Below are positions 846 to 20,189 of a stretch of 20,820 nucleotides of DNA, piece after piece. The translations under genes and the position numbers were made by a program. The stretch is from a virus: positions 1-20,820 of IMG/VR virus record IMGVR_UViG_3300042397_002866; one strand, given 5' to 3'. Position 1 is the first letter of the stretch, and the number at the start of each line of letters is the position of its first letter. The notes under the pieces are model-generated. The model saw nothing but the letters and a program-made list of their open reading frames with translations, did not search any database and was not told the DNA's origin.

Positions 846-866
846 TTGAACAAACAGTATTTTTAT

Positions 867-874
867 TATTTATC
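867..874 (-). promoter_or_regulatory. Late-promoter-like box GATAAATA
   Basis: GATAAATA on the minus strand, 22 bases before the ATG at 845, is one base from the T4 late promoter TATAAATA. The spacing to the start codon matches the boxes at 4598, 10225, 20079 and 20160 (22-23 bases). It lies immediately downstream of the terminator of the preceding gene. Confidence 0.6.
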
Positions 875-879
875 TAAAA

Positions 880-902
880 AAAGGGGACTATTCGTCCCCT
901 TT
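880..902 (-). terminator. Intrinsic terminator after the 64-aa gene
   Basis: The arms GGGGAC and GTCCCC (883-888 and 894-899) have a 5-base loop. Three A:T pairs extend the stem to 9 bp. On the minus strand the hairpin is followed by a run of T residues. The TAG stop of the 64-aa gene (888-890) lies inside the hairpin. Confidence 0.8.
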
Positions 903-1082
903 CCATAGTTTAGTTAGGATGAATCTCCAGCTCTTCGGAAAATCCGCAAGTCTAGAAGATTCTTTAGCAAGTTTCATTGCTTCCTTTCTGGTTTTAGCCT
1001 CAACCGTCCTAGTTGGGGCTTGGTATCCATTAAGATGGACCCAGTTGACTCTCCAAAGCCAACGATGCTCTCGCATTTTCAT
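888..1082 (-). CDS. Small basic protein of unknown function (64 aa)
   Basis: I do not recognise this 64-residue protein. It is rich in Trp, Arg and Lys. The N-terminal half (RWLWRVNWVHLNG, then TRTVEAKTRKEAMKLAKE) looks like a short beta hairpin followed by an amphipathic helix, a layout common in small phage proteins. The ATG at 1082 is preceded by a leader of about 60 bases carrying an AATAAATA box at 1144-1151. A second in-frame ATG two codons later is possible. The stop codon lies within a terminator hairpin, which supports this being a genuine transcribed gene ending a transcription unit that also contains the glycosyltransferase gene upstream. Confidence 0.65.
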   Translation of the reverse strand: MKMREHRWLWRVNWVHLNGYQAPTRTVEAKTRKEAMKLAKESSRLADFPKSWRFILTKLWKGDE

Positions 1083-1143
1083 AACTTAACAAGAAGCTAT
1101 GTGGCGGAGAACCAGATGGATTAATTTTTATCTTCATCTCAGT

Positions 1144-1151
1144 TATTTATT
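1144..1151 (-). promoter_or_regulatory. Possible late-promoter-like box AATAAATA
   Basis: AATAAATA on the minus strand lies just past the glycosyltransferase stop codon, one base from TATAAATA. It is about 62 bases from the next start codon at 1082, much farther than the 22-23 base spacing seen elsewhere, so it is a weaker call. Confidence 0.3.
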
Positions 1152-1155
1152 ATTG

Positions 1156-2166
1156 TTATATATTAAAAATTCTTCTAAGTTCTGCTTTTTGTCTATTAAT
1201 TAATTCAGGAGACCATGCATCAATTAGTTTCTTAATGTCTTTTTGATTCTTAACATATAATAGATCTCTTAAAACTGGGTCTTGAATTAGTCTTTTTTCT
1301 GGATCATATTCAATTTGAATCGCAGCCAGACAATTAGAGGCAAGGGTCTCATAAAATCTATAAGTAGTGACATTATTAAGATGTTCCTCATCGCCAGTTA
1401 TTAGGGATACTTTTACTTTGTCTAATTCTTTCATTAGGTCGGAGTGTTGCAGCTTCTTCATGAATGTAGCCGGAACTTTATCTGATTTATATCCAATTAA
1501 TAAATTATTGGTATCAGATGGAAAATATTTTCTAATTTGATTTTCTCTAAAGGATCCTCTTTTATCTCCATAATAGACAAGATCCCATTCTTTATCTGAA
1601 TCTTGATTAGAAGATTCCCAGAGATCAATAGAATCATCCTGAGTGAATCGATGCTTGAATATATAAGTAAACCAATCCAATTGCTTCCAATTCTTAGGAT
1701 TCCACCCTAGATACTTAGATACATCTTTACCTGAAAAAAGATAGGTTGCATTTTCGATAATTTTATCCCATGCCTCAACTGAATCATTGCATAGATTAAA
1801 TCTTTCGCTAATCACTTTAGCATAATTCATAGGAGGAATTCTAGGATCATTTACTAGCATATAAATCTTTCCGGTATATTTAGCAAGATCATTACATATC
1901 TTTTCGCAATGTTCTCCCATCTGTCCACCGAAAAAATTAGCAGTACTTAATTGAAGTATAACTGCTCCGTATTCAGAAAAATCAGTATCATTATAATCAA
2001 TGTAAAAGTCAAGGTCTTGAACATTACGGTTTTTATATCCAACACAATCAACATGGGCCCCATTCTCCTCCATCATTTTTTTAAAAAACATTGCCTCGAG
2101 CCCTCTATGATTTTTATCATTATAGGTAAGATTGGCAAATACTGAGGTTATAGCTACTCTCTTCAT
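1156..2166 (-). CDS. GT-B-type glycosyltransferase, possibly a phage DNA glucosyltransferase
   Basis: This 336-residue protein has a two-domain Rossmann layout. The N-terminal half starts with a strand and turn (MKRVAITSVF) and has further hydrophobic strands near 66-73 (YGAVILQL) and 100-106 (KIYMLVN). The C-terminal half begins with WDLVYYGDKRGSFR (195-207). It later contains RFYETLASNCLAAIQ (270-284), which matches the donor-sugar-binding part of GT-B enzymes, where a helix carrying Glu is followed by a small-residue loop. The YYG-x-R-x-x-x-R pattern resembles phage alpha-glucosyltransferase-like proteins that transfer glucose to hydroxymethylated DNA bases. Sugar, acceptor and DNA modification are inference. 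A surface or protein glycosyltransferase is the alternative. Its ATG directly abuts the stop of the DUF6378-like gene (TAAATG), so the two are co-transcribed and probably translationally coupled. Confidence 0.6.
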   Translation of the reverse strand: MKRVAITSVFANLTYNDKNHRGLEAMFFKKMMEENGAHVDCVGYKNRNVQDLDFYIDYNDTDFSEYGAVILQLSTANFFGGQMGEHCEKICNDLAKYTGKIYMLVNDPRIPPMNYAKVISERFNLCNDSVEAWDKIIENATYLFSGKDVSKYLGWNPKNWKQLDWFTYIFKHRFTQDDSIDLWESSNQDSDKEWDLVYYGDKRGSFRENQIRKYFPSDTNNLLIGYKSDKVPATFMKKLQHSDLMKELDKVKVSLITGDEEHLNNVTTYRFYETLASNCLAAIQIEYDPEKRLIQDPVLRDLLYVKNQKDIKKLIDAWSPELINRQKAELRRIFNI

Positions 2167-2451
2167 TTATTTTTTATTTTCATAATTTTCTAATCCTTGT
2201 AAATATGCTATTGCGTCTAATAAATTATCAGATTTGTGATTATAGCTTTCTCTAGATAATTTAAGGGCAACCATTGCTAAATACATGTGTCTACCTTCTA
2301 TTTTAATTCCGGTACTTGCGGTGAATATTGCAGCAGCTCTATCCATTCCTTCTGAGAAAGGGCCATACATTCGATCTGTTTCTTCTGTTCGGTCAAATAC
2401 GATGCGATGTGCTCTTTGACATAGACTCTCCTCTTGTTCTTTTTCTGACAT
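2167..2451 (-). CDS. DUF6378-like small protein
   Basis: This is a 94-residue helical protein. The pattern AHRIVFDRTEETDRMYGPF (14-32), then an AAAIFTASTG segment, then MVALKLSRE (60-68) and a final SDNLLDAIAYLQGL (74-87) matches what I recall of DUF6378. That is a family of about 80-100 residues common in phages: Arg-x-x-x-Tyr-Gly near the start, a central LK(L)xR helix and a C-terminal D-x-x-x-D-x-x-x-Y-x helix. The biochemical function of the family is not known to me. It is the first gene after the terminator at 2509-2535 and is directly joined to the glycosyltransferase gene, which hints at a nucleotide or DNA-modification setting, but that is only context. Confidence 0.65.
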   Translation of the reverse strand: MSEKEQEESLCQRAHRIVFDRTEETDRMYGPFSEGMDRAAAIFTASTGIKIEGRHMYLAMVALKLSRESYNHKSDNLLDAIAYLQGLENYENKK

Positions 2452-2466
2452 ATCTAATTTTATTCT

Positions 2467-2472
2467 ATTATA
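2467..2472 (-). promoter_or_regulatory. Possible sigma70-type -10 box TATAAT
   Basis: A perfect TATAAT on the minus strand ends 16 bases upstream of the ATG at 2451, within the AT-rich gap after a strong terminator where a new promoter is expected. No convincing -35 hexamer lies 17 bases upstream, and in DNA this AT-rich a chance match is quite possible. Confidence 0.3.
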
Positions 2473-2508
2473 CTAAATTAAATATACTAAGATTTAAATT
2501 AAAATAAA

Positions 2509-2535
2509 AAAGGGCAAATAAAATATTTGCCCTTT
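2509..2535 (-). terminator. Strong intrinsic terminator after the 672-aa gene
   Basis: A perfect 12-bp stem (AAAGGGCAAATA at 2509-2520 with its complement at 2524-2535) closes on an AAA loop. On the minus strand it is followed by a T-rich tail. It starts 22 bases past the stop codon of the 672-aa gene. It separates the structural genes from the DUF6378/glycosyltransferase unit. Confidence 0.88.
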
Positions 2536-2556
2536 AGTAATGTATGTGAATGTTAA

Positions 2557-4575
2557 TTATTCTCCAGCTCCTTCGCTGCTCGTTAAATACCATTTGTTGT
2601 CTCCGTCTACCTTCTTTGCCTGGTGGATCCATGCTTCTCCAGGTCCAAATGGAAATTCAGGTAGTGCTTCTATAATTTCAACTACATAAACGCCTTCGCT
2701 GTGCATCATAGGTGAGCCAGATCCGTCTTTAGATAATTTAAGTTTAGCTTTATCTCCCATAGGAACTTCGGTTCCTGATAGATAGTACACTTGAGTTGAG
2801 CCAGTTACTTGACCTTCGCTAGATAGGCCAAATCCCTCAGCTTCTTCATTTAACTTTTTTTCCTTTTTTTTTTTAGACTTAGCAGCCTCTGCTGATGCTT
2901 TCATTCTAGCAATCTTAACGTCATCCCAGTCATTATCTCCGTCTCCGTCTTGATCTATCTTCTTTTTTTCGTTTACTCTTCTTTTTAATAGATCAGTATC
3001 AATATATTCTAATTTTAAGGATTCAATAGTACCTTCAATAGATTCTTTTAATTCTTCTAATCTAGAAATATCAGAGATGTCAACATCATCAGAATTAATG
3101 GTAACGTCTAATTTTTTAACAGTTGCTTCTAATTTTTCAACGCTTTCTAATATTTCTCTTTTTCTAAATTCAATTGCCTCTTTATTTTTAAAAGATTCAT
3201 TAACTTTAGTTTTAAATATTGAGCTGATGTCATAATTAAAGTTAGTAGCAAAATGTTCATATAATTTAGCCTCATCAACTGGATCCCAAATTCTTTCAGC
3301 TACATTTGGCTTTTGGCACAAGAAATAGTTTTTACCTAAATTAAATACGGTAGATTCAGCTAAGGTAATGTCATTCTTGATATTCTTGATAAATTCAAAA
3401 TTAAATACTGATCTGATATTTTCAAATACTGTTTTAACTGCTCTCTTAGTTCGATCATCAACTAGGGCAAGAGCCTCAGTTAAATTAATATTATGAACGT
3501 TTTGAACCTTTGATTCATTTAAATATAAATCCAATTCTTTATTTTGATTTGGAACAAGGCCTAATTTAAATCCTCTAATAGAAGAAGTTTCAATACCTTC
3601 ATATAGACCCATTTCTTTGAATCCTAAATATGCAAAAGATTCGCAAAAAGAATAGAAATCTGAATGATTTTCTTTAACCCAATTAGGATCAATTTCAGAA
3701 ATACTATATCCTCCTTTTTTAACGAATACTTCAACTTCACTACCATCTAAATTGTTTGATTCAGTAACTCTAATGAATCTATTGTCCATATAAGTTAAAA
3801 CCGATGTCTTACTACTTTTAATAGCAGGAGCAATTGCATTTCTAACAGTAGTAGTAGAATCGCCAATTCCCAAATTAAAAGTATCATCTAATTTAGACTC
3901 TATCAACTTAAGAGAATTAACTAGACCCGTTATCATAGGTAATCCAGTTTGCCCATACTTAAAGTTAATAATATCTGATGTGTAAGTATTCTCCAACAAC
4001 ATATCAGTAAGGTCTGGAATAATGTTAGCATACATACCTGATGAATTGTAAGATTCCATTAATTGGATCGTGTTTAGCATCTCAAAATCTGCTAAGTTTG
4101 ATTCTACTATTTTACTTACTGATTTAACTGCATTGGCAACAGAAGATTCAACAGAATGCTGTTTAAAATCTTGAATGAAAGAAGGATATAGAGTAAATTC
4201 CGGAGTTCCAGAATTAATTCGACTTAAATATTCATCTACTTTATATGCAATCATTGGATGAGAATACGCGGTAGATTCCTTAATCCCTTTTAATTTTCCT
4301 CCTAAGTTAGCTATTTTAGCAAATTCTTTTAATTTAGATTCTGGTTTAAAATCTATTTTTCTAAATTGATCTAATATATTTTTAACTGAGTTACTCTTAA
4401 CATGTTTATTAACTTCAATTAGTCCTCTTTTTACCTGTTCATATATCACTTCATATCTTTCTCCGGTTTGGATAGATTTATTTGCAGATTCTATAACAAG
4501 TCCGATTAATTGATTTGAGTTAACTTCCGGATTAGTTTGCAATTCGTGTAACACACTATTTACGAAATCTTTCAT
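2557..4575 (-). CDS. Large probable virion protein with an EF-hand-like loop (672 aa)
   Basis: I do not recognise the family. Residues 1-260 are helical. Residues 265-350 look mixed, and 470-530 form a Glu/Lys-rich probable coiled coil. Residues 541-552 read DQDGDGDNDWDD, a textbook EF-hand-type calcium loop (Asp at 1, 3, 5, Gly at 6, Asp at 12), followed by a Lys-rich stretch (566-575, KSKKKKEKKL). A C-terminal beta-rich piece (590-665) carries the motif GEAWIHQAKK. Acidic EF-like loops beside Lys-rich stretches are familiar to me from head or scaffold proteins of marine T4-like phages, so an internal head or core role is one option, though unproven. It has its own late-type promoter box 23 bases upstream of the ATG and a strong terminator downstream, so it can be expressed as a single-gene unit. 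Confidence 0.7.
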   Translation of the reverse strand: MKDFVNSVLHELQTNPEVNSNQLIGLVIESANKSIQTGERYEVIYEQVKRGLIEVNKHVKSNSVKNILDQFRKIDFKPESKLKEFAKIANLGGKLKGIKESTAYSHPMIAYKVDEYLSRINSGTPEFTLYPSFIQDFKQHSVESSVANAVKSVSKIVESNLADFEMLNTIQLMESYNSSGMYANIIPDLTDMLLENTYTSDIINFKYGQTGLPMITGLVNSLKLIESKLDDTFNLGIGDSTTTVRNAIAPAIKSSKTSVLTYMDNRFIRVTESNNLDGSEVEVFVKKGGYSISEIDPNWVKENHSDFYSFCESFAYLGFKEMGLYEGIETSSIRGFKLGLVPNQNKELDLYLNESKVQNVHNINLTEALALVDDRTKRAVKTVFENIRSVFNFEFIKNIKNDITLAESTVFNLGKNYFLCQKPNVAERIWDPVDEAKLYEHFATNFNYDISSIFKTKVNESFKNKEAIEFRKREILESVEKLEATVKKLDVTINSDDVDISDISRLEELKESIEGTIESLKLEYIDTDLLKRRVNEKKKIDQDGDGDNDWDDVKIARMKASAEAAKSKKKKEKKLNEEAEGFGLSSEGQVTGSTQVYYLSGTEVPMGDKAKLKLSKDGSGSPMMHSEGVYVVEIIEALPEFPFGPGEAWIHQAKKVDGDNKWYLTSSEGAGE

Positions 4576-4597
4576 TTCTATGCTAATTATTTTAATT

Positions 4598-4605
4598 TAT
4601 TTATC
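4598..4605 (-). promoter_or_regulatory. Late-promoter-like box GATAAATA
   Basis: GATAAATA on the minus strand ends 23 bases before the ATG at 4575, in the gap between the 677-aa and 672-aa genes. Motif and spacing match the other boxes in this window. Confidence 0.6.
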
Positions 4606-4627
4606 TTCATTTAAATTGAAAAAGTAA

Positions 4628-6661
4628 TTATTTTCTTCTATCGAATGGATCGAATTTTCTTCTATTGGATCCTAAATCATCTAAATTCCCAGCGTTTGTT
4701 TTTATTGCGGTTGGATTTTTAGTAAATACTCTATTTACAGTTGGAGCAACTGCTTTTAGTTTAATCGATCCCCTGATCGCATCTCTAGCTCCTTTTACGG
4801 CGGAGTTAAGTATCTGTTTCCTCAATTCTTCTACTTCTTCTTCTAATTCTATAATTCGCTCAGCATCACTAATTCGTTTAGTCACTTCTCCTCTTATAGA
4901 CTTCACAAGGTCATCTATTTCAGACTGCTCAGATGATAATCTCCATTCTCCAGAATACATTAAGCTTTCAGTTCCGTTTTGAGCAATTGAAGTTATATAA
5001 ACTGATCTATTTGATGATTCTACAATCTTTTGGCTATCAGCCTTAGAGATTTTAAACATTATTTCACCAGTTGATAGGTTCTCCTCAGTTGCACTGTTTG
5101 TATTAGAAATTGGTACCTTGCCAGTATCTAAATCAAAGACTAATTGAAATCTAGAATTATTTAAATTTAAATCTAATGGAATCGCAACCTCATTGATTAC
5201 GTTGTATAGTTTAATTTTGATTGCGTTATCAAATGGAGAAACAATAAATCTTAATTGTCCTGGTCCAAATATAACCTCATCTGCAGTATCTGAAGTCTGT
5301 AAAAGTCCATTAGAATTAGATGCAGATATGTTATTATTGCTAAAGAATATTGGAATATACTCTACTGATTTTTGAGCAGGGGCCTCTTCTTGAGTTGGAG
5401 TAACTCCAAATCCAGGGGCAAATGAAGGCTCAATAAATAAGTTACTAGCTTCAAAATTAGCTTTTATTATTTTGTTGTATATTTTTTGACTTTGCGGCTC
5501 GTCTGTTAATGGAATGACCGTTAGATTTCTTCCGTATTTTTTAGGAGAAAGCAGAGTAAATGAGGCCTCTCTAATTATCTGCTCCCCATTTAATCTATTA
5601 GTTAATCTACATACTAGATCGATTGCCATACTCACTGCATGGCCTGCATTTCTCAATACTGGTCTAATAACAAGTGGTTCATCAAATTTATCCTCTTGGA
5701 ATATTACCTGTCTGCCTGTATTTACAAATGAGCTTCCTAATTGCTCAAAAATACTAAGTTGGTGAATTACAATCCAATCATTAGACGGATTTCTTCGGTT
5801 TAAAATAGCAATTAGATCCTCTGGAAATCCTCCTTCGTATGTTAAATAATACTCAATAAAATCTCCATTTGTAGATTCTCCAACATATGCTCCCACTGAG
5901 TCAAATTCATTACTTTGAGATAATGAAGCATCAAAGCTATCACTAACTTCAAATATATCGTATGTTGTTCCGACATTAGTGTTTATAACAGACCTTCTAC
6001 GACATTCAGACAGGTTTACAGTAATCTGATTATTGTAAACAAATCCACTATATCCTCCACTAGGCGATGGCGTTATTTTAGCTGCAAACGTATTAGCCTG
6101 ATTAAGAGCCGTTTTATAATCTTCATTAATATTTTTAATTGAAGGTATTTTAATATCCACATACCTATCGTATGTTGAATTTGCTAAAAATAGAGGCTTA
6201 GGATTAAATGTTATTAGATCGTCAAATGTTTCTCTAGTTAAAATTATATTTGCAAAAACATTAGTCTTTGCATTGTTTTGAAGGTGTCGGATACTTAAGA
6301 TCAGTCCCTCGAATTGAGTTGGAGTAAATCCAGATATGAAGTGAAATCTTACCTTATCATATGGAATAGAATATCCATTTACATTAGTTTGAACAATATT
6401 AGTATCATATGATAAATAGTCAGGTATCTTTTCAGAATCTAAGTATGCAAACTTATTATTTCCTATCGGTACCACTGATAAATCCTTTACGTTTCTAGTA
6501 GTATTTAAGGCAGCATCGGTGTTTATAATTTGATTAATATCTAGAGTTTCGTTTTCTAATAATATAAAATCTTCGCTTAGAAAATTAGTTGAGCTTAAGG
6601 GCTCAAACATATATTCTGCAATACAATATGTCGATATATTTACAAATCTACTTTGAGTCAT
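4628..6661 (-). CDS. Large probable structural protein (677 aa)
   Basis: I do not recognise the family. The protein begins MTQSRFVNISTYCIAEYMFE without a signal peptide. Residues 50-500 are dominated by alternating hydrophobic beta-strand patterns with many Asn, Ser and Thr, typical of a virion beta-sandwich protein. A low-complexity linker lies near 405-425 (TPTQEEAPAQK). Near the C-terminus a heptad-like coiled coil (ERIIELEEEVEELRKQIL) suggests oligomerisation, followed by a basic tail ending in KFDPFDRRK. The gene sits two bases after the stop of the spanin-like gene and ahead of the 672-aa gene, within a block of virion genes. A tail, neck or baseplate component is plausible. No enzymatic motif is visible. 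Confidence 0.65.
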   Translation of the reverse strand: MTQSRFVNISTYCIAEYMFEPLSSTNFLSEDFILLENETLDINQIINTDAALNTTRNVKDLSVVPIGNNKFAYLDSEKIPDYLSYDTNIVQTNVNGYSIPYDKVRFHFISGFTPTQFEGLILSIRHLQNNAKTNVFANIILTRETFDDLITFNPKPLFLANSTYDRYVDIKIPSIKNINEDYKTALNQANTFAAKITPSPSGGYSGFVYNNQITVNLSECRRRSVINTNVGTTYDIFEVSDSFDASLSQSNEFDSVGAYVGESTNGDFIEYYLTYEGGFPEDLIAILNRRNPSNDWIVIHQLSIFEQLGSSFVNTGRQVIFQEDKFDEPLVIRPVLRNAGHAVSMAIDLVCRLTNRLNGEQIIREASFTLLSPKKYGRNLTVIPLTDEPQSQKIYNKIIKANFEASNLFIEPSFAPGFGVTPTQEEAPAQKSVEYIPIFFSNNNISASNSNGLLQTSDTADEVIFGPGQLRFIVSPFDNAIKIKLYNVINEVAIPLDLNLNNSRFQLVFDLDTGKVPISNTNSATEENLSTGEIMFKISKADSQKIVESSNRSVYITSIAQNGTESLMYSGEWRLSSEQSEIDDLVKSIRGEVTKRISDAERIIELEEEVEELRKQILNSAVKGARDAIRGSIKLKAVAPTVNRVFTKNPTAIKTNAGNLDDLGSNRRKFDPFDRRK

Positions 6662-6663
6662 TT

Positions 6664-7455
6664 TTATTTTTTCTTTTTAGCATTAAATCTATATACATAG
6701 CTTACTCCAACTTGACCTATGCTAGTTAAATTCACTAATAGATTATGATTTTTAATATAAGCCCCGCCAGTAATAGAGAAAGCATCGGTTTGAGATTGAG
6801 AGAACGACTTAAAATATCCTCCTCCTAATAGGAATCCTACTTTTTGATATTCAACGGAAACTATTTTATCAGGTGGTAGACTGTTAATTTGCATACTATC
6901 TACCTTCAACCAACTAGGTCCAATTAATCTAGAATTCCATAATCCTCTGCTAGTTTCAGTTAATATGATTTGTAAAGGTAATTTACCGAATGACCATTCT
7001 CCAAGATAAGATTTGGTTTTTGAAAATATCTTACCATTCCAATTTATAAATGCCTCTTCCGAGCTCGGATATTTTAGGGAAAGATTGATAATTGAAGTAT
7101 CTTTAGGATCAACTGTGACTCCACCTTCAGATACTGCTCCTTCTAATGAAATAATAGATTTGTTAATCATTAGTAGTCTTTCATCCTGCTTTTTTAATAA
7201 TTTACTAAGATCTTTATTATCTTCAGCTAGCTGTTGATTTAATTCTCGTTGAGAACTAAAATAATTAACCAGTTTTGCATATTGCCCGTCTGATTCTTTT
7301 TTTAGCTTATCTAATTTTACCAGTTCTCGATTCGCTGAATTGACTTCTTCCATTAGCTTCTTTTGAGCTAATTGATTTTCCCATCTCATCCATAGAATCA
7401 CAGCGACTAGGACTAGGATAATAATGAAAGTTAAGTTTTCTCTAAGATTTTTCAT
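6664..7455 (-). CDS. Membrane-anchored coiled-coil protein with beta-rich C-terminus (spanin-like architecture)
   Basis: This 263-residue protein starts with a short basic N-terminus and one transmembrane helix (residues 8-23, TFIIILVLVAVILWMR), with no signal-peptidase or lipobox Cys. A long coiled coil (26-105) follows. A beta-rich domain (115-200) comes next, then Gly-rich alternating strands (205-256) ending VSYVYRF before a Lys tail. The layout, inner-membrane anchor, periplasm-spanning coil and C-terminal beta hairpins with an aromatic end reminiscent of outer-membrane strands, would suit a unimolecular spanin bridging the two membranes at lysis. That role is inferred from architecture only. 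A membrane-bound tail or host-envelope factor is also possible. It overlaps the upstream 82-aa gene by 14 bases, indicating co-translation. Confidence 0.6.
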   Translation of the reverse strand: MKNLRENLTFIIILVLVAVILWMRWENQLAQKKLMEEVNSANRELVKLDKLKKESDGQYAKLVNYFSSQRELNQQLAEDNKDLSKLLKKQDERLLMINKSIISLEGAVSEGGVTVDPKDTSIINLSLKYPSSEEAFINWNGKIFSKTKSYLGEWSFGKLPLQIILTETSRGLWNSRLIGPSWLKVDSMQINSLPPDKIVSVEYQKVGFLLGGGYFKSFSQSQTDAFSITGGAYIKNHNLLVNLTSIGQVGVSYVYRFNAKKKK

Positions 7456-7690: not shown

Positions 7691-7691
7691 A

Positions 7692-10202: not shown

Positions 10203-10212
10203 CTTAATTAAA

Positions 10213-10233
10213 AGTTCTTTTTATTATTTATTT
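10213..10233 (-). promoter_or_regulatory. Late-promoter-like region with AATAAATA box
   Basis: The AATAAATA box on the minus strand is at 10225-10232, ending 23 bases before the ATG at 10202. The surrounding 21 bases are repeated exactly at 13932-13952. The box overlaps the stop codon of the preceding 71-aa gene. Confidence 0.6.
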
Positions 10234-11467: not shown

Positions 11468-11534
11468 AGGATGATCTTTTTTATTTTATATAAAAAAAAA
11501 TAAAAAGGTTTTGCAATTAATATATTTTGCTAGA

Positions 11535-12433: not shown

Positions 12434-12445
12434 ATATCTATTAAT

Positions 12446-12976: not shown

Positions 12977-12988
12977 CTGTATTATTTA

Positions 12989-13928: not shown

Positions 13929-13931
13929 ATG

Positions 13932-13952
13932 AGTTCTTTTTATTATTTATTT
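13932..13952 (-). promoter_or_regulatory. Late-promoter-like region with AATAAATA box
   Basis: This is the same 21 bases as at 10213-10233, with the AATAAATA box at 13944-13951 on the minus strand. The box ends 16 bases before the ATG at 13928, slightly closer than the 22-23 base spacing of most other boxes. Confidence 0.55.
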
Positions 13953-13969
13953 TAAAAAAATAAAAGAAG

Positions 13970-14434
13970 TTAAATAAAAATGAGAGCTAAAGAACCTATT
14001 ATTAAGGTTGGAATTCCAAAAAGATATGATACGCTATAGATATAATCTCTCTGGTTATATTTTCTATCTTCAAATTTTATTTGAATGATATATCCATAGT
14101 AATCTTCAGTTTTGACTCTTTCATAATCTACAAAAATTGAATCCAATATGCCTTCTTTTTGCAAAAAATCAGTATACTTTTTAAGCTTATCTCCCACATA
14201 TCTTAATTCTGCAGGTTCAATTGTAAGTTCATCATAAGTTAAAATCTGCTCGTTTAAATTAATTCCTAAAAGAAGAAATTTATTTTGGCGAGTAATTCCC
14301 ATTTCTTGGAGTTTACCTGTGCTTTCAAGATTATCTACAATCTTGATATAGATCTTTCTATATTTTCTGATTTTAGAATATTCTCGATATCTATTTAAAA
14401 CTCGAGAAGGATAAATGTAGTCTTTAATTTTCAT
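13970..14434 (-). CDS. C-terminally anchored membrane protein (154 aa)
   Basis: The N-terminal 35 residues are very basic and Tyr-rich (SRVLNRYREYSKIRKYRKIY). A mixed alpha/beta middle region follows, and one transmembrane helix forms the extreme C-terminus (135-154, SYLFGIPTLIIGSLALIFI). This tail-anchored topology leaves almost the whole protein in the cytoplasm. The ATG overlaps the sigma-factor stop as ATGA, so translation is probably coupled to it. One speculative role is a membrane-bound anti-sigma factor, since such genes commonly follow sigma genes, but no anti-sigma fold is recognised. It could equally be the first gene of the membrane-protein group that follows. Confidence 0.62.
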   Translation of the reverse strand: MKIKDYIYPSRVLNRYREYSKIRKYRKIYIKIVDNLESTGKLQEMGITRQNKFLLLGINLNEQILTYDELTIEPAELRYVGDKLKKYTDFLQKEGILDSIFVDYERVKTEDYYGYIIQIKFEDRKYNQRDYIYSVSYLFGIPTLIIGSLALIFI

Positions 14435-15060
14435 ATGTCAAATATATGGTTTAGTGTTTCTTTAAATTCAGGATTCTTTAAAAGTACGTTATCCCTTACG
14501 TCAATTCTAATTTTCCTAAGCTTGGTTTTAACTGTATTTTCGTTTATATCGTATTTTACAGATATCTCCTTAATCTTTTCATTCTTTATCATCTTATCAA
14601 TTGCTATATTTCTAAGAGTAGAGTCTTCGATTTGATTTATTGCCGATACTGTCTCAGAATACAGATGGTCTATTTCGGACTGAACTCCGTCTGAGTCATA
14701 TTCAATTGAAATATCTCCACCGCTGCCCATATATTCTAGGCTCACAGTAGGATGCTGATTCTTTTTGTAGAGATAAAAAAGGGTCTCGTTACGAGTAATT
14801 GTATAAATCCAAGTTGTAAACTTGGCCTTATTAAAATCAAATTTATCTATATTTTTAAATATTTTTTTTAAAGACCACTGAAGAGCCTCTACTGTATCAT
14901 CATCATTTCTACAAAAGGTCCACACAAAATACTTTAATTTTGGATAAATTAATTCGACAAGCTCATTCTTTTGTCTTTCAGTTATCGAACAATCTTGAAA
15001 TTTCGATGCAATGTAATTAATTCTTTCATTTGCTTGTTGGTTAGTTGTTTCAAATCCCAT
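14431..15060 (-). CDS. Phage sigma factor (sigma70 family, ECF-like), candidate late sigma
   Basis: This 209-residue protein has both hallmarks of a compact sigma factor. Region 2 (about 36-102) contains DDDTVEALQWSLKKIFKNID, DKFDFNKAKFTTWIYTITRN and a basic end, matching the core-RNA-polymerase and -10-box binding helices. Region 4 (about 135-192) contains the helix-turn-helix KIKEISVKYDINENTVKTKL. Regions 1 and 3 are absent, as in ECF sigmas. Unlike T4 gp55, a region 4 seems to be present. It most likely directs host RNA polymerase to phage promoters. The repeated TATAAATA-type boxes in this window are the obvious candidates. A perfect copy of the box lies 28 bases upstream of its own ATG, inside the preceding gene. 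The gene sits between terminase and structural genes, and its stop overlaps the next ATG. Confidence 0.8.
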   Translation of the reverse strand: MGFETTNQQANERINYIASKFQDCSITERQKNELVELIYPKLKYFVWTFCRNDDDTVEALQWSLKKIFKNIDKFDFNKAKFTTWIYTITRNETLFYLYKKNQHPTVSLEYMGSGGDISIEYDSDGVQSEIDHLYSETVSAINQIEDSTLRNIAIDKMIKNEKIKEISVKYDINENTVKTKLRKIRIDVRDNVLLKNPEFKETLNHIFDI

Positions 15061-15064
15061 GTTT

Positions 15065-15373
15065 TTAGTTAGCTTTTACATTATTTTTATTTATATCACG
15101 AATGATATTTATACAAGTTTGACACTTTTCATACTCCTCTAACTCTTCGAAGAATTCAATGCACCGATTTAGCCATTCTACGAATTTATCTCTAGATAAA
15201 ATTATGGGATATTTAGTATCACCTGTACTAATTTCAACAATTTCAATTTTTTCAATCTTAGAATCGTTATAATTATTTTCTATAGATTTTATAATGTTAT
15301 CATAAATTTGCCATCGATATTGAACAAATAATTGTTCTACCGTTAGCTTTCCGTGAAATTGTAATTTACTCAT
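15065..15373 (-). CDS. Unknown small protein upstream of the sigma gene (102 aa)
   Basis: I do not recognise it. It appears alpha/beta: a helical N-terminal part (TVEQLFVQYRWQIYDNIIKS), a hairpin (EKIEIVEISTGDTKYPIILS), then helices with three Cys (71, 84, 87), the last two as CQTC. The stop lies four bases before the sigma-factor ATG, so the two genes are co-transcribed. Its last codons contain the TATAAATA box at 15088-15095. A TATAAT on the minus strand at 15399-15404 may start this transcript. A sigma partner, such as a small co-activator or anti-sigma protein, is conceivable from position only. Confidence 0.6.
   Translation of the reverse strand: MSKLQFHGKLTVEQLFVQYRWQIYDNIIKSIENNYNDSKIEKIEIVEISTGDTKYPIILSRDKFVEWLNRCIEFFEELEEYEKCQTCINIIRDINKNNVKAN
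15088..15095 (-). promoter_or_regulatory. Perfect TATAAATA box before the sigma gene
   Basis: TATAAATA on the minus strand is identical to the T4 late consensus and ends 28 bases before the sigma-factor ATG. It lies within the coding end of the 102-aa gene (codons for D-I-N-K), so it could be partly coincidental. Confidence 0.5.
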
Positions 15374-15398
15374 GTTGAACAGTATTAATCGTAAATTA

Positions 15399-15404
15399 AT
15401 TATA
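15399..15404 (-). promoter_or_regulatory. Possible sigma70-type -10 box before the 102-aa/sigma pair
   Basis: TATAAT on the minus strand (context TGTGGTATAAT) ends 26 bases before the ATG at 15373. The 43-base gap after the terminase gene contains no late-type box. The -35 position (TTAAAT) is poor, so recognition by the host sigma is uncertain. Confidence 0.35.
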
Positions 15405-15416
15405 CCACAATCCTAA

Positions 15417-17393
15417 TTAAGATTTAAAGAATCTGTTTTTTATTTTTTCTATCTGATCTTGGGTCTCAATATCAAATACGTTTCTTTTAATAGTTTTACC
15501 ACTTGCTGCTGTATACGTATCAGTGTTCATTCTTCTAATCTCATCATAATCATATAGAGAAGACTTTCCATTATTTCTATGAACGTTAAATATTTTTTCC
15601 TCTACTTCTTTAAGATATTCAGATGGTGCTCTCTCAAAGGTTTCAACGGCAATTTCCCAAAATTGACTCGATTCAAATATTGAGGACATGTTAACTGACG
15701 TCATTGCCATATCATCTGTTCCGTTTTGTCCTCTATATAAACCACCTTTAGATTTTCCAAAAGATCCAAGCTCAGAAACCGTTATCCAATCATTTGGAAT
15801 AATTCGGTCAATTGCAACTAGATATTTAAACTTCTCACAATATTTAATTTTGTTAGTTGGACCTAATCTTAGACCAGGTTTAAATGAGAGTGCTGCCTGA
15901 GTATGCTTAGTATGTACCATCTGTCCGGGCCAATATTTATCATTTTCCTTAAATCGGTTTAATAAGATGTCCCCCTTGTGATTTAATTCCAGTACAATTC
16001 TAGTTTGATCAGTATTGAATATTTCATATATAATATGTTCGCACACTACTGAAAATTCGTTAATATCAACTTGATTAGATCTAAAATATCCAATTTGAAC
16101 TAGCGAAACTGCATCGACCTCATTTTTTACAATGTTTATCTTTTTACTCAATTCCCTAACTGGCAAAGGAACTGCTTTATAGATATTAAGAACCGAGTAG
16201 TCTCCTCCGATTCCATCTGCAGTATCAATGCTAAATACATAATTAGTTAGATCCTGTTTAAAATCTGAGACTGTTCTATTTAGATAATTTCGATGGAAGA
16301 AAATATATTGATTGTAATCAAATAGATCCTCCTGTAATATTAAATTTACATTCTCGTATCCTTGTTTAATAATATCTAATTTTCTTAGATCCTTTGAATT
16401 TAGAAGTAATTTGTCTGAAGAATAGAACTGTAGGCCATATTCCTGATTGAAATCTTCTTCTGATCCAAGATCTGCAATTTTCCTTTTTTTCCATTCTTCA
16501 TCACGACCTGCAATCTGCCACCAGTCAACTCTTAAAGGATAAAAGCTTGATTTTTTGCCTATTGCATCTGTCCATATTTCCCAGAATTTATTTTTACCAT
16601 TAGGGGTAGACGTTATGATTATTCTACCGTTAGGGTCAGCTGTTACTGTTGGAAAAATTGCTCGATAAAATTCATCTAAGTTAGCTTCGTTAATGTGAGC
16701 AAACTCATCTATATATAATAAGTTAACTGATAGACCAATACCTGATTTTTTAGTTGTTGTTCGTCCTACTAATCTACTATTTGAATCGAATTTTACATTA
16801 CTTGCATTAACAACATCAATCCCAGGCTTCATAAAGAACGGAAGACCTTCTAAACTGATTTTAAATTTATCTATTAATTCTTTAGTGGTTGTAAAATTAT
16901 CTGCTACGCATAGAGCAGTTTTATCGGGATGAAATAGTAGAAACCATAGAATAAAAATGGCAGAGGTTACTGTTTTACCAGTTTGACGACTTGCCATTAA
17001 TATATTGAGATTGTTATCTTTATACGCTTTTAAAATCTGATTTTGAAAGTCTCTAAGACCTCCTGCGTCCTTTACTATCATTCTACCGTTGTTGGTTTGA
17101 ATGACGCAATAATTTAACGCAAAATAGATTAAGGAAGATTTACACTTTGACATCTCTTCGATTTCTTCTGGAGTATATTCAAATGGTAAATTTTCTCTTC
17201 TTAAGTTTATATCATTATCTTTAAATGGAGACATTCCTAATTTTCGAACGTCCTTTACCCCGCTATTGATGTCATCAATTAATTGATTTATCTTCTCAGT
17301 TGTCCAGATATAATTATTGTCCTTAGAGTCTCCGCCTATAGCAGATACCCGAGTTGTGGAATATCCTCCACTATTGGACATTATATCTTTCAT
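15417..17393 (-). CDS. terL: Terminase large subunit (T4 gp17-like packaging ATPase/nuclease)
   Basis: This 658-residue motor protein translocates DNA into the prohead and cuts it. The N-terminal ATPase carries Walker A SRQTGKT (135-141, cf. SRQLGKT in T4 gp17), Walker B LLYIDE (225-230) with the catalytic Glu, and the coupling motif TSTPNG (261-266) followed by KNKFWEIW. The C-terminal RNase-H-like nuclease shows Asp390 in VFSIDTADGIGGDYS, Glu469 in IVLELNHKGD and Asp560/Asp561 in NGTDDMAM, the expected acidic triad. Length is near the T4 protein (610). No intein or frameshift is present. The ATG at 17393 follows the TerS stop by three bases. An alternative start at Met5 is possible. The resemblance to gp17 suggests headful packaging. 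Confidence 0.97.
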   Translation of the reverse strand: MKDIMSNSGGYSTTRVSAIGGDSKDNNYIWTTEKINQLIDDINSGVKDVRKLGMSPFKDNDINLRRENLPFEYTPEEIEEMSKCKSSLIYFALNYCVIQTNNGRMIVKDAGGLRDFQNQILKAYKDNNLNILMASRQTGKTVTSAIFILWFLLFHPDKTALCVADNFTTTKELIDKFKISLEGLPFFMKPGIDVVNASNVKFDSNSRLVGRTTTKKSGIGLSVNLLYIDEFAHINEANLDEFYRAIFPTVTADPNGRIIITSTPNGKNKFWEIWTDAIGKKSSFYPLRVDWWQIAGRDEEWKKRKIADLGSEEDFNQEYGLQFYSSDKLLLNSKDLRKLDIIKQGYENVNLILQEDLFDYNQYIFFHRNYLNRTVSDFKQDLTNYVFSIDTADGIGGDYSVLNIYKAVPLPVRELSKKINIVKNEVDAVSLVQIGYFRSNQVDINEFSVVCEHIIYEIFNTDQTRIVLELNHKGDILLNRFKENDKYWPGQMVHTKHTQAALSFKPGLRLGPTNKIKYCEKFKYLVAIDRIIPNDWITVSELGSFGKSKGGLYRGQNGTDDMAMTSVNMSSIFESSQFWEIAVETFERAPSEYLKEVEEKIFNVHRNNGKSSLYDYDEIRRMNTDTYTAASGKTIKRNVFDIETQDQIEKIKNRFFKS

Positions 17394-17396
17394 ATC

Positions 17397-18119
17397 TTAA
17401 ATTATTTCAGTAATATCAATGAAATCTTCGCCTGACTTATTCTCTTCTTCATTAATCACTATATCTGATTTACGAAGCAAATTTAATTTATTATTTGGAT
17501 CTATTAAATTAGCATCTCCATCATCTGAAATATCTGAATCAGGTAGATTTTGTATTACATTTTTAGTTCCAACCGAGATAAAGTATTTTCCTTCAATATC
17601 GCTGGATTCTACGCGGGCAGAATCTGGATTTGCAGGGGCATCATTGTTTAATTTTTTATAAGTATCCTCTAAGAAAAGAATGTAGTTAGCCTGCATTTTA
17701 GTTATGTTTGCCATCTTATCCTGCAATTGACCCATCACCTCCAATAATCTAGGTTGAACATTTCCAGTTGCTATTTCTTCCATAATCTTCATTATGGATA
17801 TTTTAAGAGTTTTTAATTGAAAGAATAAATTTGAAATATTAATAGTGTCTAATTCTTTCTTATGTCGAGCATAGTCATTTTTTTCAAATATTCCAATATC
17901 TACAAAATTCTTAAAAAGAGAATCTGTTATTTCTCTTGCCTTTTGAGTAAATTGATCGCTCATTTGATCAAAGTCGTATTGGCTTTCCGATCTAATCTCA
18001 TTAGATAATTCATTATCTAGAACCATATCCTCATTGTCAGAACTGATGCTACTTAATAGATTTTCTATTTCGTTTTTAAGGATTTTTCTGTTATCCTTAC
18101 TTATTTTTCCGTTTGCCAT
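17397..18119 (-). CDS. terS: Terminase small subunit (T4 gp16-like)
   Basis: This 240-residue protein lies directly upstream of terL. The core, residues 80-157, follows the gp16 pattern: DYARHKKELDTI, a helix, KIMEEIATGNVQPRLLEVMG (111-130, with the characteristic Pro-Arg-x-x-Glu-Val), then a second long helix of the central coiled-coil hairpin (QLQDKMANITKMQANYILFL). Gp16 oligomers recognise the packaging start and stimulate the large subunit. The protein is longer than T4 gp16 (164), with an acidic N-terminal extension (20-60) and a long acidic, probably disordered C-terminal tail (160-240) rich in Asp and Asn that may contact TerL. Its ATG overlaps the preceding stop by one base (TAATG). 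Confidence 0.78.
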   Translation of the reverse strand: MANGKISKDNRKILKNEIENLLSSISSDNEDMVLDNELSNEIRSESQYDFDQMSDQFTQKAREITDSLFKNFVDIGIFEKNDYARHKKELDTINISNLFFQLKTLKISIMKIMEEIATGNVQPRLLEVMGQLQDKMANITKMQANYILFLEDTYKKLNNDAPANPDSARVESSDIEGKYFISVGTKNVIQNLPDSDISDDGDANLIDPNNKLNLLRKSDIVINEEENKSGEDFIDITEII

Positions 18120-18364
18120 TAATTGATTTTATTGTCGTTCTTATCTACTGCCGGATTCGCATATGCTTTAATGGTCTTAACTGCTTCAATCCATTCATAT
18201 ACACAATCATTAGCCGACTTAATGAACCTATCTAATGTTTCGTTTATTCCAAACATTTGAGAAGATAGAGTATTTTTCATTATATTATCTTTATAATCGT
18301 ATCCTAAATTTATTCTTCTATCCTTTCTACTTAAAGTTTCTCTATATATGCTATCTTTTAACAT
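18119..18364 (-). CDS. Unknown small helical protein (81 aa)
   Basis: I do not recognise it. The N-terminus is very basic (DSIYRETLSRKDRRINLGYD). A helical centre with Trp and Cys follows (ETLDRFIKSANDCVYEWIEA), then a polar end (NPAVDKNDNKIN). It lies between the baseplate wedge gene (13-base gap) and terS (one-base TAATG overlap), so it is translated with terS. In T4-like phages small head- or tail-completion proteins can sit near the terminase genes, but nothing in this sequence identifies it as one of them. Confidence 0.6.
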   Translation of the reverse strand: MLKDSIYRETLSRKDRRINLGYDYKDNIMKNTLSSQMFGINETLDRFIKSANDCVYEWIEAVKTIKAYANPAVDKNDNKIN

Positions 18365-18377
18365 GGTACAAATTTAT

Positions 18378-20057
18378 TTAATTTAATTGTCTTGGTACAA
18401 TATCAGTTATTCTAATATTAACTGCTCCTAGCGGATTTAATACACCAGTAGGATCAACAGGTCCTATTCCAGAAGCATATTGGTTTCCAAATCGGTCACT
18501 AAATCCTCCTCTAATTATTGGAAGCTGACCGTCTGTAATTATAATATCATTATAATCATCTAATCCAATTAAAGCAGCTCCCGGATTTGCAGACTTAGCT
18601 GCCTCATTTAATTCCCCTACAATTGTAACTGCAACTGAGTCAACTCCTTTTACTTCTTCGATTATTTTAATTAAATCACTTTTTGGAATTCTATTTCTTC
18701 GAGTATTATTAATGAAATATAAACCTAAAGAAGAATAGATATCGGATTTAATTAATTCTACGGGAACATCATCGAATACGATTATACTAAGATTAATTAC
18801 ATATTTAATTATTACAGGATCAATTATTTTAATGTCAGTTGAAACTAATTTACTTCCTGATTTTTCAAGATATTTCAACAATTCAGACTTTTGAAATTGA
18901 CTCATTCTAAATATATCTAAATCTGCGCCAAAATAGGATTGCGGAGTATTGAATGATCTAGTTATATCAGGTATTAAAAATAAATTTAACATTCTATCAT
19001 CAACCGGATCTAAATATATTGAAATCAAAGAAAAAAGTCCTAATCGTCTAAGAACAATTTCATAATGATCTGGATTAACTAAAGCAAAGCTTTTAGAGTT
19101 TTTTGGAGCAATTAATCTAGTTAAATCTGCGCTTTCAGGATTGGTTCCAAAATAAGGAGGATTTTCAGTTTTAATTTTAATAAATTTATTTAGATCTACT
19201 TCTTCTCCAGTAATAGTAAATCCAGTATCATCAAAAGAAAAATTGACTGACGAAGTATTGGTAGTCTTAATATTTCCGCCAGGTCCTTCTGTTACTATAT
19301 ATTCAACAGTTATCTTTGATCCAGGAGGAGGAATTAATCCGTAAGATCCGTTTCCAAAATATAAATCTAATCCAGATGTTATACCTGTTTTAATAATAAA
19401 TCCAGGGGCACTTAATGGAATATCTAACATCGATTCATATCTTTTCCATTTTTGATCATTAACATATACATTTACATAAAAATTATCTATAAAATAACTT
19501 TGAGGGCTGGCAACTGAAAAGCTAGTCAATGGCTTCCCAGACCCTGTGAACGTTTGAGATTCTATAATCCCTTGTCTTATTTGTAATTTAAGACCATTAT
19601 CTTCTCCTCTAAGAGAAAATTTTATTTGATCTTGGGGTAAATCTAATAAATATATTAATCCGTTGTTTTCGCTTGTTAATCTGGTTAGATTTGAAATAAT
19701 TACATAATCTGCCGGAAGATCGGTTTCATCCGTTTCTAATGATAGGGATATTTCTCCAATGGCTGAAGTTGCTCTACTTGGATTATGCCCGGCGAGCGAA
19801 GCTAATGAATATATTGATGTCAATCGAGTTGCCTCATTTATATTCAATTCAGTTATAGAATCTTCTATATAATAGAATATTAATTGAGTTAGATTCTCTA
19901 TTACAATTAAAATTTGTCCAAATGGAGAAGCTGCCGTAAATACAGCCTTGCTTTGATTAAATCTGGCAGTTAGATAATTAATTGTATCTAGAGTAATATC
20001 CTCCACTGTTGCCTTAAACGAGCTTAGTATCTTATATGGCGAAAATTGACTTGGCAT
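18378..20057 (-). CDS. Baseplate wedge protein, gp6 / baseplate-J type
   Basis: This 559-residue protein has the order expected of gp6/gp47/J-type wedge proteins. There is a helical N-terminus (20-95) with an LTSIYSLASLAGHNPSRATS segment, where early helices lead into a beta domain. The family signature is at 234-262: FGNGSYGLIPPPGSKITVEY, then a Thr-x-Gly-x-x-Gly-Asn turn. A region of short strands and helices (300-480) includes HYEIVLRRLGLFSLISIYLD and IEEVKGVDSVAVTIVG. The protein forms the ring of wedges around the tail hub that opens on contraction. T4 gp6 is about 660 residues. Here the C-terminus is shorter but complete. Two TATAAATA boxes precede it (20079-20086 and 20114-20121), so it heads the leftward late transcript containing terS and terL. 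Confidence 0.82.
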   Translation of the reverse strand: MPSQFSPYKILSSFKATVEDITLDTINYLTARFNQSKAVFTAASPFGQILIVIENLTQLIFYYIEDSITELNINEATRLTSIYSLASLAGHNPSRATSAIGEISLSLETDETDLPADYVIISNLTRLTSENNGLIYLLDLPQDQIKFSLRGEDNGLKLQIRQGIIESQTFTGSGKPLTSFSVASPQSYFIDNFYVNVYVNDQKWKRYESMLDIPLSAPGFIIKTGITSGLDLYFGNGSYGLIPPPGSKITVEYIVTEGPGGNIKTTNTSSVNFSFDDTGFTITGEEVDLNKFIKIKTENPPYFGTNPESADLTRLIAPKNSKSFALVNPDHYEIVLRRLGLFSLISIYLDPVDDRMLNLFLIPDITRSFNTPQSYFGADLDIFRMSQFQKSELLKYLEKSGSKLVSTDIKIIDPVIIKYVINLSIIVFDDVPVELIKSDIYSSLGLYFINNTRRNRIPKSDLIKIIEEVKGVDSVAVTIVGELNEAAKSANPGAALIGLDDYNDIIITDGQLPIIRGGFSDRFGNQYASGIGPVDPTGVLNPLGAVNIRITDIVPRQLN

Positions 20058-20078
20058 TATATTAGATGTAATTTATAT

Positions 20079-20086
20079 TATTTATA
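20079..20086 (-). promoter_or_regulatory. Perfect late-promoter box TATAAATA for the leftward operon
   Basis: TATAAATA on the minus strand ends 22 bases before the ATG of the baseplate wedge gene (20057). It is identical to the T4 late promoter core and lies in a non-coding divergent region, making it the best promoter call in the window. Confidence 0.75.
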
Positions 20087-20113
20087 CCGAAATTATTAAA
20101 TTGGATCGCGAAT

Positions 20114-20121
20114 TATTTATA
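20114..20121 (-). promoter_or_regulatory. Second upstream TATAAATA box (tandem)
   Basis: A second perfect TATAAATA on the minus strand lies 35 bases farther from the wedge gene than the first. It may be a tandem late promoter giving a longer leader. Confidence 0.5.
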
Positions 20122-20159
20122 CTGATTTTAATACTGTTTATCAAATACAATTAATCTTA

Positions 20160-20167
20160 GATAAATA
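20160..20167 (+). promoter_or_regulatory. Late-promoter-like box GATAAATA for the rightward gene
   Basis: GATAAATA on the plus strand ends 23 bases before the ATG at 20190, the same spacing as the leftward boxes. It is embedded in a 6-base inverted repeat, TTAGAT and ATCTAA (20157-20162 and 20168-20173). Confidence 0.6.
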
Positions 20168-20189
20168 ATCTAAAGATATTGACTAATAA

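What the first reader, a model, noticed from the sequence alone, without database searches (positions are those of the whole stretch)
867..20167. A T4-late-like promoter octamer recurs at fixed distance before genes
TATAAATA or a one-base variant (GATAAATA, AATAAATA) ends 22-23 bases before five starts: 845, 4575, 10202, 20057 on the minus strand and 20190 on the plus strand. Further copies lie before 13928 (16 bases), 15060 (28 bases) and 1082 (62 bases). The constant spacing and the absence of a -35 partner match the T4 late class, here in a phage that appears to use a non-Shine-Dalgarno host. It defines a late regulon that can be read from sequence alone.
Basis: partly seen in the sequence, partly recalled or inferred. 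Interest (0 to 1): 0.7.

Follow-up and report, generated by a model that had tools for sequence, protein, structure and literature searches.

The report
Extended late promoter of T4-like phages
The repeated short sequence is very probably a real on-switch for late virus genes, related to that of phage T4 but longer and different in detail, in an uncultured phage family that probably infects Bacteroidetes.

Summary
The boxes are real T4-late-type promoters, but the element is longer than the T4 octamer.

The window is 99.995% identical to part of a 136.7-kb contig, G001. There [TGA]ATAAATA lies 15-35 bases before 34 of 151 called starts (shuffle mean 4.8); nine related contigs also exceed their shuffle means. 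Seedless motif search on two related sets gives a 15-mer, RATAAATAAWAAAAA. T at position 1 is the minority, and an AAA block sits at fixed distance behind the octamer, over the expected RNA start. Octamers near starts carry the extension in 141 of 178 cases, elsewhere 30 of 328; T4 near starts, 0 of 20.

The boxes before 845, 4575, 10202, 13928, 20057 and 20190 are kept in 34 of 37 orthologues; those before 15060 and 1082 lack comparative support. Spacing varies.

G001 encodes a gp55-family sigma. Boxed genes include sheath, baseplate and tail-fibre genes. No gp33 or gp45 was found. RNA starts and timing are untested.

Also found: an early class (TATATTTAC) and an ECF-like class (AAAC-N16/17-GTATAAT) that may belong to the ECF-like sigma encoded in the window. 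The three classes coincide at 1 of 881 genes.

The parts
860..874 (-). late element GATAAATAATAAAAA, 21 bases between octamer and start 845 (tape-measure-like gene, weak PHROG match)
   Evidence: score 16.6; kept in 7 of 7 orthologues; gene: phrog_167 E 2e-4
4591..4605 (-). late element GATAAATAAATTAAA before start 4575
   Evidence: score 15.3; kept in 9 of 9 orthologues at 20-22 bases
10218..10232 (-). late element AATAAATAATAAAAA before start 10202
   Evidence: score 16.1; 1 of 1 orthologue
13937..13951 (-). late element AATAAATAATAAAAA, 15 bases before start 13928
   Evidence: score 16.1; 3 of 4 orthologues, one of them at 9 bases
20072..20086 (-). late element TATAAATAATATAAA before start 20057 (gp6-like baseplate wedge gene)
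   Evidence: score 13.7; 6 of 8 orthologues, a ninth is cut by its contig end; gene: phrog_219 E 5e-29
20160..20174 (+). late element GATAAATAATCTAAA before start 20190, divergent to the previous one
   Evidence: score 15.2; 8 of 8 orthologues
20114..20121 (-). second octamer TATAAATA, 56 bases before start 20057, without the downstream A block
   Evidence: role not tested
15088..15095 (-). octamer TATAAATA 27 bases before start 15060 (a further copy at 15106-15113); probably not a conserved promoter
   Evidence: none of 9 orthologues has it at this place, one (G009) has an octamer at 36 bases
1144..1151 (-). octamer AATAAATA 61 bases before start 1082, without the A block; unsupported
   Evidence: no orthologue of the (shortened) ORF
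14431..15060 (-). ECF-like sigma factor, 209 aa; candidate reader of the AAAC-N16/17-GTATAAT class (inferred)
   Evidence: Pfam Sigma70_r2 E 4e-9 above cut-off, region 4 below it; SigW 5wuq E 1.4e-7; relatives in all ten contigs; NENT[VI]KTKLRK kept in 10 of 10 aligned; fold matches are ECF sigmas, best E 0.003
15399..15405 (-). GTATAAT, 25 bases before start 15373 (102-aa ORF upstream of the sigma gene); possible -10 of the ECF-like class, no AAAC at 16-17 bases
   Evidence: GTATAAT before the orthologous ORF also in G003, G004, G005, G007, G008

Best explanation
RATAAATAAWAAAAA is the late promoter of this phage family. By inference, host RNA polymerase carrying the phage's gp55-family sigma reads the ATAAATA core at -13 to -6, opens the AT-only segment behind it and starts RNA within the A block (-1 to +2), giving a leader of about 8-21 bases before a non-SD start codon. 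Shown: the motif, its position and orientation, its conservation before the same genes, the kinds of genes, and the sigma gene in the same phage. Inferred: that this sigma reads it, where RNA starts, and that expression is late.
For: Enrichment before starts. Seedless recovery in two separate sets. Matrix trained on G002 and G004-G010: in G001 26 of 27 sites with score 15 or more end 10-28 bases before a called start (13 of 19 in G003). Element kept in 34 of 37 orthologues of six window genes. Divergent gene heads 54 of 105, genes less than 25 bases behind a same-strand gene 22 of 420. Extension in 141 of 178 near-start octamers against 30 of 328 elsewhere and fixed to the octamer, not to the ATG. 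RATAAATAANNNAAA: 166 matches against 12 reversed controls in 14 further records. gp55-family sigma in G001 and G002. T4 precedent for the octamer at -13 to -6 with no -35 (PMC2988020, passages and part 1 of section 3).
Against: No RNA data. No gp33 or gp45 relative found. The gp55 relative covers only positions 3-116 of the 181-position profile, and 9 of 11 records searched, fragments included, show none. In G001 and G003 the seedless search ranked another motif first. Bare TATAAATA is not more frequent than its reversed control over whole contigs. Only 6 of 22 boxed G001 genes scanned gave a structural-type PHROG hit; 11 gave none. G002 sites have a C eleven bases upstream in 61%, unexplained. 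Contigs are not all independent: box positions in G003 and G007 run in parallel.
Confidence: 0.82

Rival explanations
1. The sites are promoters, but read by a host sigma or by the phage's ECF-like sigma instead of the gp55 relative.
For: Two phage sigma genes exist; none of the reading is tested; 9 of 11 records show no gp55 relative.
Against: The box is the T4/cyanophage type that gp55 reads. The ECF-like sigma has a separate, bipartite candidate class. The known flavobacterial main-sigma box TAnnTTTG differs (PMC6847099 and PMC9723704, passages). Records without a gp55 hit are fragments.
Confidence: 0.1
2. The motif, or at least its A block, is a translation signal of a non-SD host and not part of a promoter.
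For: It lies close to start codons; F. johnsoniae is reported to use A-rich sequence upstream of starts, perhaps through bS1 (PMC6847099, passages); A is raised at -11 to -13 in G001.
Against: The block keeps its distance to the octamer while the distance to the ATG varies: A at least 0.92 at positions 12-14 for 17-26 bases, weaker (0.61-0.90) at 13-16. Only 22 of 420 closely following same-strand genes have the element, though they need translation too.
Confidence: 0.05
3. Chance in AT-rich intergenic DNA (32% G+C in the window).
For: Bare TATAAATA is no commoner than its reversed control over whole contigs; the 15060 and 1082 sites are probably of this kind.
Against: Shuffles, antisense and reversed controls, cross-contig matrix test and orthologue conservation.
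Confidence: 0.02

Closest known systems
T4 late promoter (TATAAATA, gp55/gp33/gp45)
   Same: ATAAATA core before genes, no clear -35 element, both strands, gp55-family sigma in the phage
   Different: R instead of T first (T in 18 of 178 here, 18 of 23 in T4); A instead of C/T/G at position 8; AAA at 12-14 (0 of 20 in T4); gp33 and gp45 not found
Cyanophage late promoter NATAAATA (S-PM2, PMC2984593, passages; S-SCSM1 analysed here)
   Same: First base relaxed (A in 16 of 27 in S-SCSM1)
   Different: Extension in only 3 of 14 near-start octamers
Flavobacterium phage MaF61 boxes (found here)
   Same: Few SD-like starts (12 of 167); ATAAATA before genes, purine first, G in 15 of 20
   Different: No extension (0 of 13 near starts); modest enrichment, 20 boxes against 7 antisense
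Prevotella phage Lak-A1 octamers (found here)
   Same: Octamers peak about 20-33 bases before called starts in the 14 tiles read
   Different: Extension in 3 of 34 near-start and 22 of 298 other octamers; tiles were chosen partly because they hold matches

Membership tests
T4-type late promoter | ATAAATA core of the TATAAATA octamer, enriched before genes | tested here: met
T4-type late promoter | T at the first octamer position (A(-13) at nine of fifty T4 sites) | tested here: not met
   A 92, G 67, T 18, C 1 of 178; relaxed in cyanophages too, so not fatal to the class
T4-type late promoter | No conserved -35 element | tested here: met
   no strong upstream position in G001 or G003-G010 (at most 0.35 bit beyond the base next to the box); one position of 0.64 bit at -11 in G002
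T4-type late promoter | RNA start about six bases behind the octamer | not testable with these tools
   no RNA data
T4-type late promoter | gp55-family sigma in the same phage | tested here: met
   phrog_234, G001 22104-22418, E 2.6e-18; G002 E 2.1e-16; 2 of 11 records
T4-type late promoter | gp33 coactivator | tested here: inconclusive
   PF16805: 0 of 11 records; records are fragments or of unknown completeness
T4-type late promoter | gp45 sliding clamp bound by C-terminal ends of the sigma | tested here: inconclusive
   phrog_223 rang nowhere; PF02916 found T4 gp45 but nothing in G001-G003; gp55 relatives end in hydrophobic [IV]Y[ST]I or close to it, binding unknown
T4-type late promoter | Late (structural) genes are its targets | tested here: met
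   sheath, fibres, collar, head closure, minor tail in G001 (6 of 22 scanned), gp6-like and tape-measure-like in the window; RNR, GroEL lack it; timing itself not tested
ECF sigma factor (window 14431-15060) | Regions 2 and 4 only | tested here: inconclusive
   region 2 above, region 4 below the Pfam cut-off; fold matches to ECF sigmas at E 0.003 or worse, model pLDDT 72
ECF sigma factor (window 14431-15060) | Own bipartite promoter with AAC-type -35 | tested here: inconclusive
   such a class exists in the phages; its link to this sigma is inferred

The most novel reading that the evidence does not exclude
The A block is an initiation element that ties transcription to SD-free translation: late RNAs start inside a run of A, perhaps with extra A added by slippage as in poxvirus late RNAs (recalled), so that each late mRNA carries a 5' oligo(A) leader that the host ribosome (bS1) can use in place of a Shine-Dalgarno sequence. 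In the same phages a second, ECF-like phage sigma reads its own AAAC-N16/17-GTATAAT class, so that three promoter alphabets (host-like early, ECF-like, extended late) divide the genome.
Probability: 0.15. Interest if true: 0.75.

Novelty: new variant of a known kind. Interest (0 to 1): 0.5.

Why it matters
It gives a sequence-only rule for the late regulon of a family of uncultured T4-like phages with a non-SD, probably Bacteroidetes, host. It shows that a T4-type late promoter can carry a fixed downstream A block that T4, one cyanophage and one Flavobacterium phage do not show. It also suggests a testable pairing of two phage sigma factors with two promoter classes. My searches of the held library (listings only, some capped: 20 of 31, 12 of 32 and 25 of 412 papers shown) turned up no paper on late promoters of such phages; most subscription journals are not in that library.

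Tried and rejected
Rejected: the 1082 and 15060 sites as conserved late promoters; constant spacing; chance from AT content; a translation signal fixed to the start codon.

Led nowhere: gp33 and gp45 by profile. T4 gp55 by phmmer hit only G002. The gp55 relative had no phmmer match in the PDB. Structure models are of middling quality (pLDDT 72) and Foldseek gave no match at E 0.001 or better. The terminase found nothing in genome contigs. DNA polymerase C-termini as a test of a shared clamp-binding end were not decisive: the G001 gene is cut by the contig end, and the two G002 pieces do not end that way. PTm1 shows no peak. PAU, pT24, Moby and two uncultured phages were only counted, with matches near or below their controls. 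Among leftover genes, no motif above shuffled level in G001 and a small excess in G002 (79 against 65), not followed. The first gene caller was too weak and was replaced.
Full report
What the window is. It encodes a T4-type terminase large subunit, a gp6-like baseplate wedge protein and other phage genes, nearly all on the minus strand. It is 99.995% identical over its whole length to positions 59854-80673 of an IMG/VR contig of 136,739 bases, called G001, so G001 is not independent of it. Thirty-four loci with the terminase were found in viral contigs. I read ten contigs from this set (G001-G010, 19-207 kb) and called genes with a simple hexamer-based caller of my own (151 genes in G001). That caller shortens some starts in the window, so there I also used the ORF list. 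Nucleotide identity of G002-G010 to the window is about 65-78% over aligned pieces longer than 400 bases. The contigs are not all independent of each other: octamer positions in G003 and G007 run in parallel.

The observation. All eight boxes exist as described. [TGA]ATAAATA at 15-35 bases before starts: window 7 of 24 genes (shuffle mean 0.7, max 4), G001 34 of 151 (4.8, max 15), G002 32 of 222 (1.9, max 7), G003 17 of 197 (5.0, max 12; antisense 10). Nine of ten contigs exceed every shuffle; G010 has 3 of 21 (mean 0.5, max 4). Over whole contigs the bare octamer TATAAATA is not more frequent than its reversed pattern; the signal lies in position and in the longer element.

The element. A seedless motif search recovered the same element, R-ATAAATA-A-W-A-rich-AAA, in G004-G010 (311 genes) and in G002 (222 genes) separately. 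In G001 and G003 the same search ranked other, GTATAT-containing motifs first; in G001 that is the early class below. Logos around octamers 13-25 bases before starts (37 sites in G001, 98 distinct in G003-G010, 33 in G002) show A at position 8 in 97%, and A at positions 12, 13, 14 in 81, 92, 97% (G001), 90, 93, 94% (G003-G010) and 91, 100, 100% (G002), falling to 42-52% at position 15. Over G001-G010, 141 of 178 octamers near a start have A8 and AAA12-14 against 30 of 328 elsewhere; the first base near starts is A 92, G 67, T 18, C 1. When sites are grouped by distance to the start codon the block stays at 12-14: A is at least 0.92 at all three positions for 17 to 26 bases, but weaker at 13-16 bases (0.61, 0.87, 0.90). 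It therefore goes with the octamer and not with the start codon.

Tests on other data. A matrix from 41 distinct sites of G002 and G004-G010 was applied to G001 and G003. At score 15 or more, 26 of 27 G001 hits and 13 of 19 G003 hits end 10-28 bases before a called start; at 11 or more, 37 of 42 and 18 of 33; in the window 7 of 9. For 14 of the 32 loci found through the gp55 relative I searched the whole records: RATAAATAANNNAAA has 166 matches and the reversed control 12; 13 of 14 records have a match. One of them (G011) comes from the same sample as G003 and may be part of the same genome; two belong to a more distant gp55 lineage.

Conservation gene by gene. Reciprocal best orthologues with the element: 845: 7 of 7; 4575: 9 of 9; 10202: 1 of 1; 13928: 3 of 4 (one at 9 bases); 20057: 6 of 8, with one more cut by its contig end and not counted; 20190: 8 of 8. 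Together 34 of 37. For contigs in the training set the matrix score is not independent, but the octamer itself can be read there. For 15060, none of 9 orthologues has the octamer at that place; one (G009) has one at 36 bases. For the ORF 888-1082 no orthologue was found, though only the shortened was tested.

Promoter, not translation signal. The element precedes 54 of 105 genes with a divergent upstream neighbour, 22 of 420 genes less than 25 bases behind a same-strand neighbour, 43 of 102 at 25-59 bases and 42 of 208 at 60 or more; early-class genes were left out of these counts.

Gene class. In G001 36 genes carry the element by matrix score. I scanned 22 of them, all outside the window, against PHROGs (first two). 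Structural-type hits: tail sheath, two tail fibres, a tail collar protein, head closure Hc2 and a minor tail protein with lysin-like match (6 of 22). The rest: a UDP-glucose dehydrogenase (first base C), an ATPase, an HNH endonuclease, two families without stated function, and 11 without a hit. In the window the gp6-like protein and a weak tape-measure match add two. Genes without the element include RNR large and small subunits, GroEL and a 5'-3' exonuclease. An endolysin gene also lacks its own box; it is the second gene behind a boxed start at G001 83338.

The sigma factors. G001 encodes at 22083-22493 a 136-aa protein of the T4 gp55 family (phrog_234, E 2.6e-18), and G002 a relative (E 2.1e-16); the window and G003-G010 gave none. 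It matches profile positions 3-116 of 181. Its model, from 13 sequences, is of moderate confidence (pLDDT 72) and its best fold matches are region 2 of sigma factors, none below E 0.05. The window encodes a second, ECF-like sigma at 14431-15060 with relatives in all ten contigs. gp33 (PF16805) was not found in 11 records. phrog_223 (gp45) rang nowhere, controls included, so that search says little; PF02916 found T4 gp45 but nothing in G001, G002 or G003.

Comparison. T4 octamers within 60 bases of starts begin with T in 18 of 23 and are followed by C, T or G in all but 4%; the extension is in 0 of 20 near-start octamers. MaF61: G first in 15 of 20, extension 0 of 13. S-SCSM1: A first in 16 of 27, extension 3 of 14. 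PTm1: no clear peak, 26 boxes against 11 antisense, extension 0 of 9. Whole-record counts of RATAAATAANNNAAA, with reversed controls: G001 27 (2), G002 32 (0), G003 19 (0), S-SCSM1 4 (0), Lak-A1 25 (7), T4 0 (0), MaF61 1 (1), PTm1 1 (3), pT24 2 (1), PAU 1 (1), Moby 0 (0), two uncultured phages 10 (11) and 16 (13). In the Lak-A1 tiles the extension is not tied to starts. The T4 review gives the octamer, no -35 conservation, AT-richness behind the box and A(-13) at nine of fifty sites (PMC2988020, passages and part 1 of section 3). NATAAATA in cyanophages is from PMC2984593 (passages).

Other promoter classes. In G001, 25 of 47 TATATTTA[CA] lie within 60 bases of starts, most of them at 113-136 kb before small genes; the 23 TATATTTAC there share ATTTTCA upstream. 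This resembles the Bacteroidetes element TAnnTTTG (PMC6847099 and PMC9723704, passages) but has A in place of G. The class was also seen in G003 and G006, hardly or not in G002, G004, G005 and G008, the others of the seven contigs looked at. A third class, AAAC-N16/17-GTATAAT, has 28 copies in the ten contigs: 18 at spacing 16 and 10 at 17, against 0-3 at each other spacing from 8 to 30; 21 of 28 end within 40 bases before a start. In 13 other family records it has 30 matches against 8 controls; T4 has 1 (3) and MaF61 1 (1). Of 881 genes, 160 have only the late element, 45 only the early one, 35 only the ECF-like one (looser form, AAAC-N15-17-GTATA), 1 has late and ECF-like, 640 none. The link to the window's sigma is inference; SigW's TGAAAC-N16-CGTA is recalled.

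A shared protein end. In G001 3 of 151 proteins end in [ILVM][YF]x[ILVM] (about 0.6 expected from inner positions): the gp55 relative, the ECF-like sigma and the glucosyltransferase at window 1156-2166. In the terminase and sigma loci 34 of 37 complete ECF-like sigma ends keep it and 3 do not (some loci are from the same contig); the G002 sigma does not. In T4, gp55 and alpha-glucosyltransferase bind the clamp gp45, beta-glucosyltransferase does not (PMC2988020 and PMC13216743, passages). The window's gene matches a family named beta-glucosyltransferase. A clamp-binding role is a guess.

Host. Starts have an SD-like motif in 9 of 151 (G001), 16 of 222 (G002), 12 of 167 (MaF61), 10 of 308 (PTm1), 78 of 259 (S-SCSM1) and 148 of 242 (T4). 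Named phages with related terminases include those of Tenacibaculum and Flavobacterium at about 30% identity, but also phages of other hosts. A Bacteroidetes host is likely, not proven.

Mechanism. With the octamer at -13 to -6, as in T4, the AAA block falls at -1 to +2, so RNA would begin in the A run and reach the start codon after about 8-21 bases. Whether the block serves opening, start choice, slippage or ribosome binding cannot be told from sequence.

Noticed in passing
window 14431-15060 (-) and G001:C1:22083-22493: Two phage sigma genes in one phage: an ECF-like one beside the terminase and a gp55-family one.
   Followed up: partly
G001-G010, e.g. before GroEL at G001:C1:13925-15550: Bipartite class AAAC-N16/17-GTATAAT, sharply spaced and before starts.
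   Followed up: partly
G001:C1:113000-136000: Early-type region of small genes with ATTTTCA ... TATATTTAC upstream.
   Followed up: partly
window 1156-2166, 14431-15060; G001:C1:22083-22493: Only three of 151 G001 proteins end in [ILVM][YF]x[ILVM]: both sigmas and the glucosyltransferase; possibly a clamp-binding end.
   Followed up: partly
G002 late sites, 11 bases upstream of the octamer: C in 61% of 33 sites (0.64 bit), not seen in the other contigs.
   Followed up: no
Flavobacterium phage MaF61 (PQ858689): GATAAATA before genes, G first in 15 of 20, without the A block.
   Followed up: partly
Prevotella phage Lak-A1 tiles (L135-L148): Octamers about 20-33 bases before called starts, without the A block.
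   Followed up: partly
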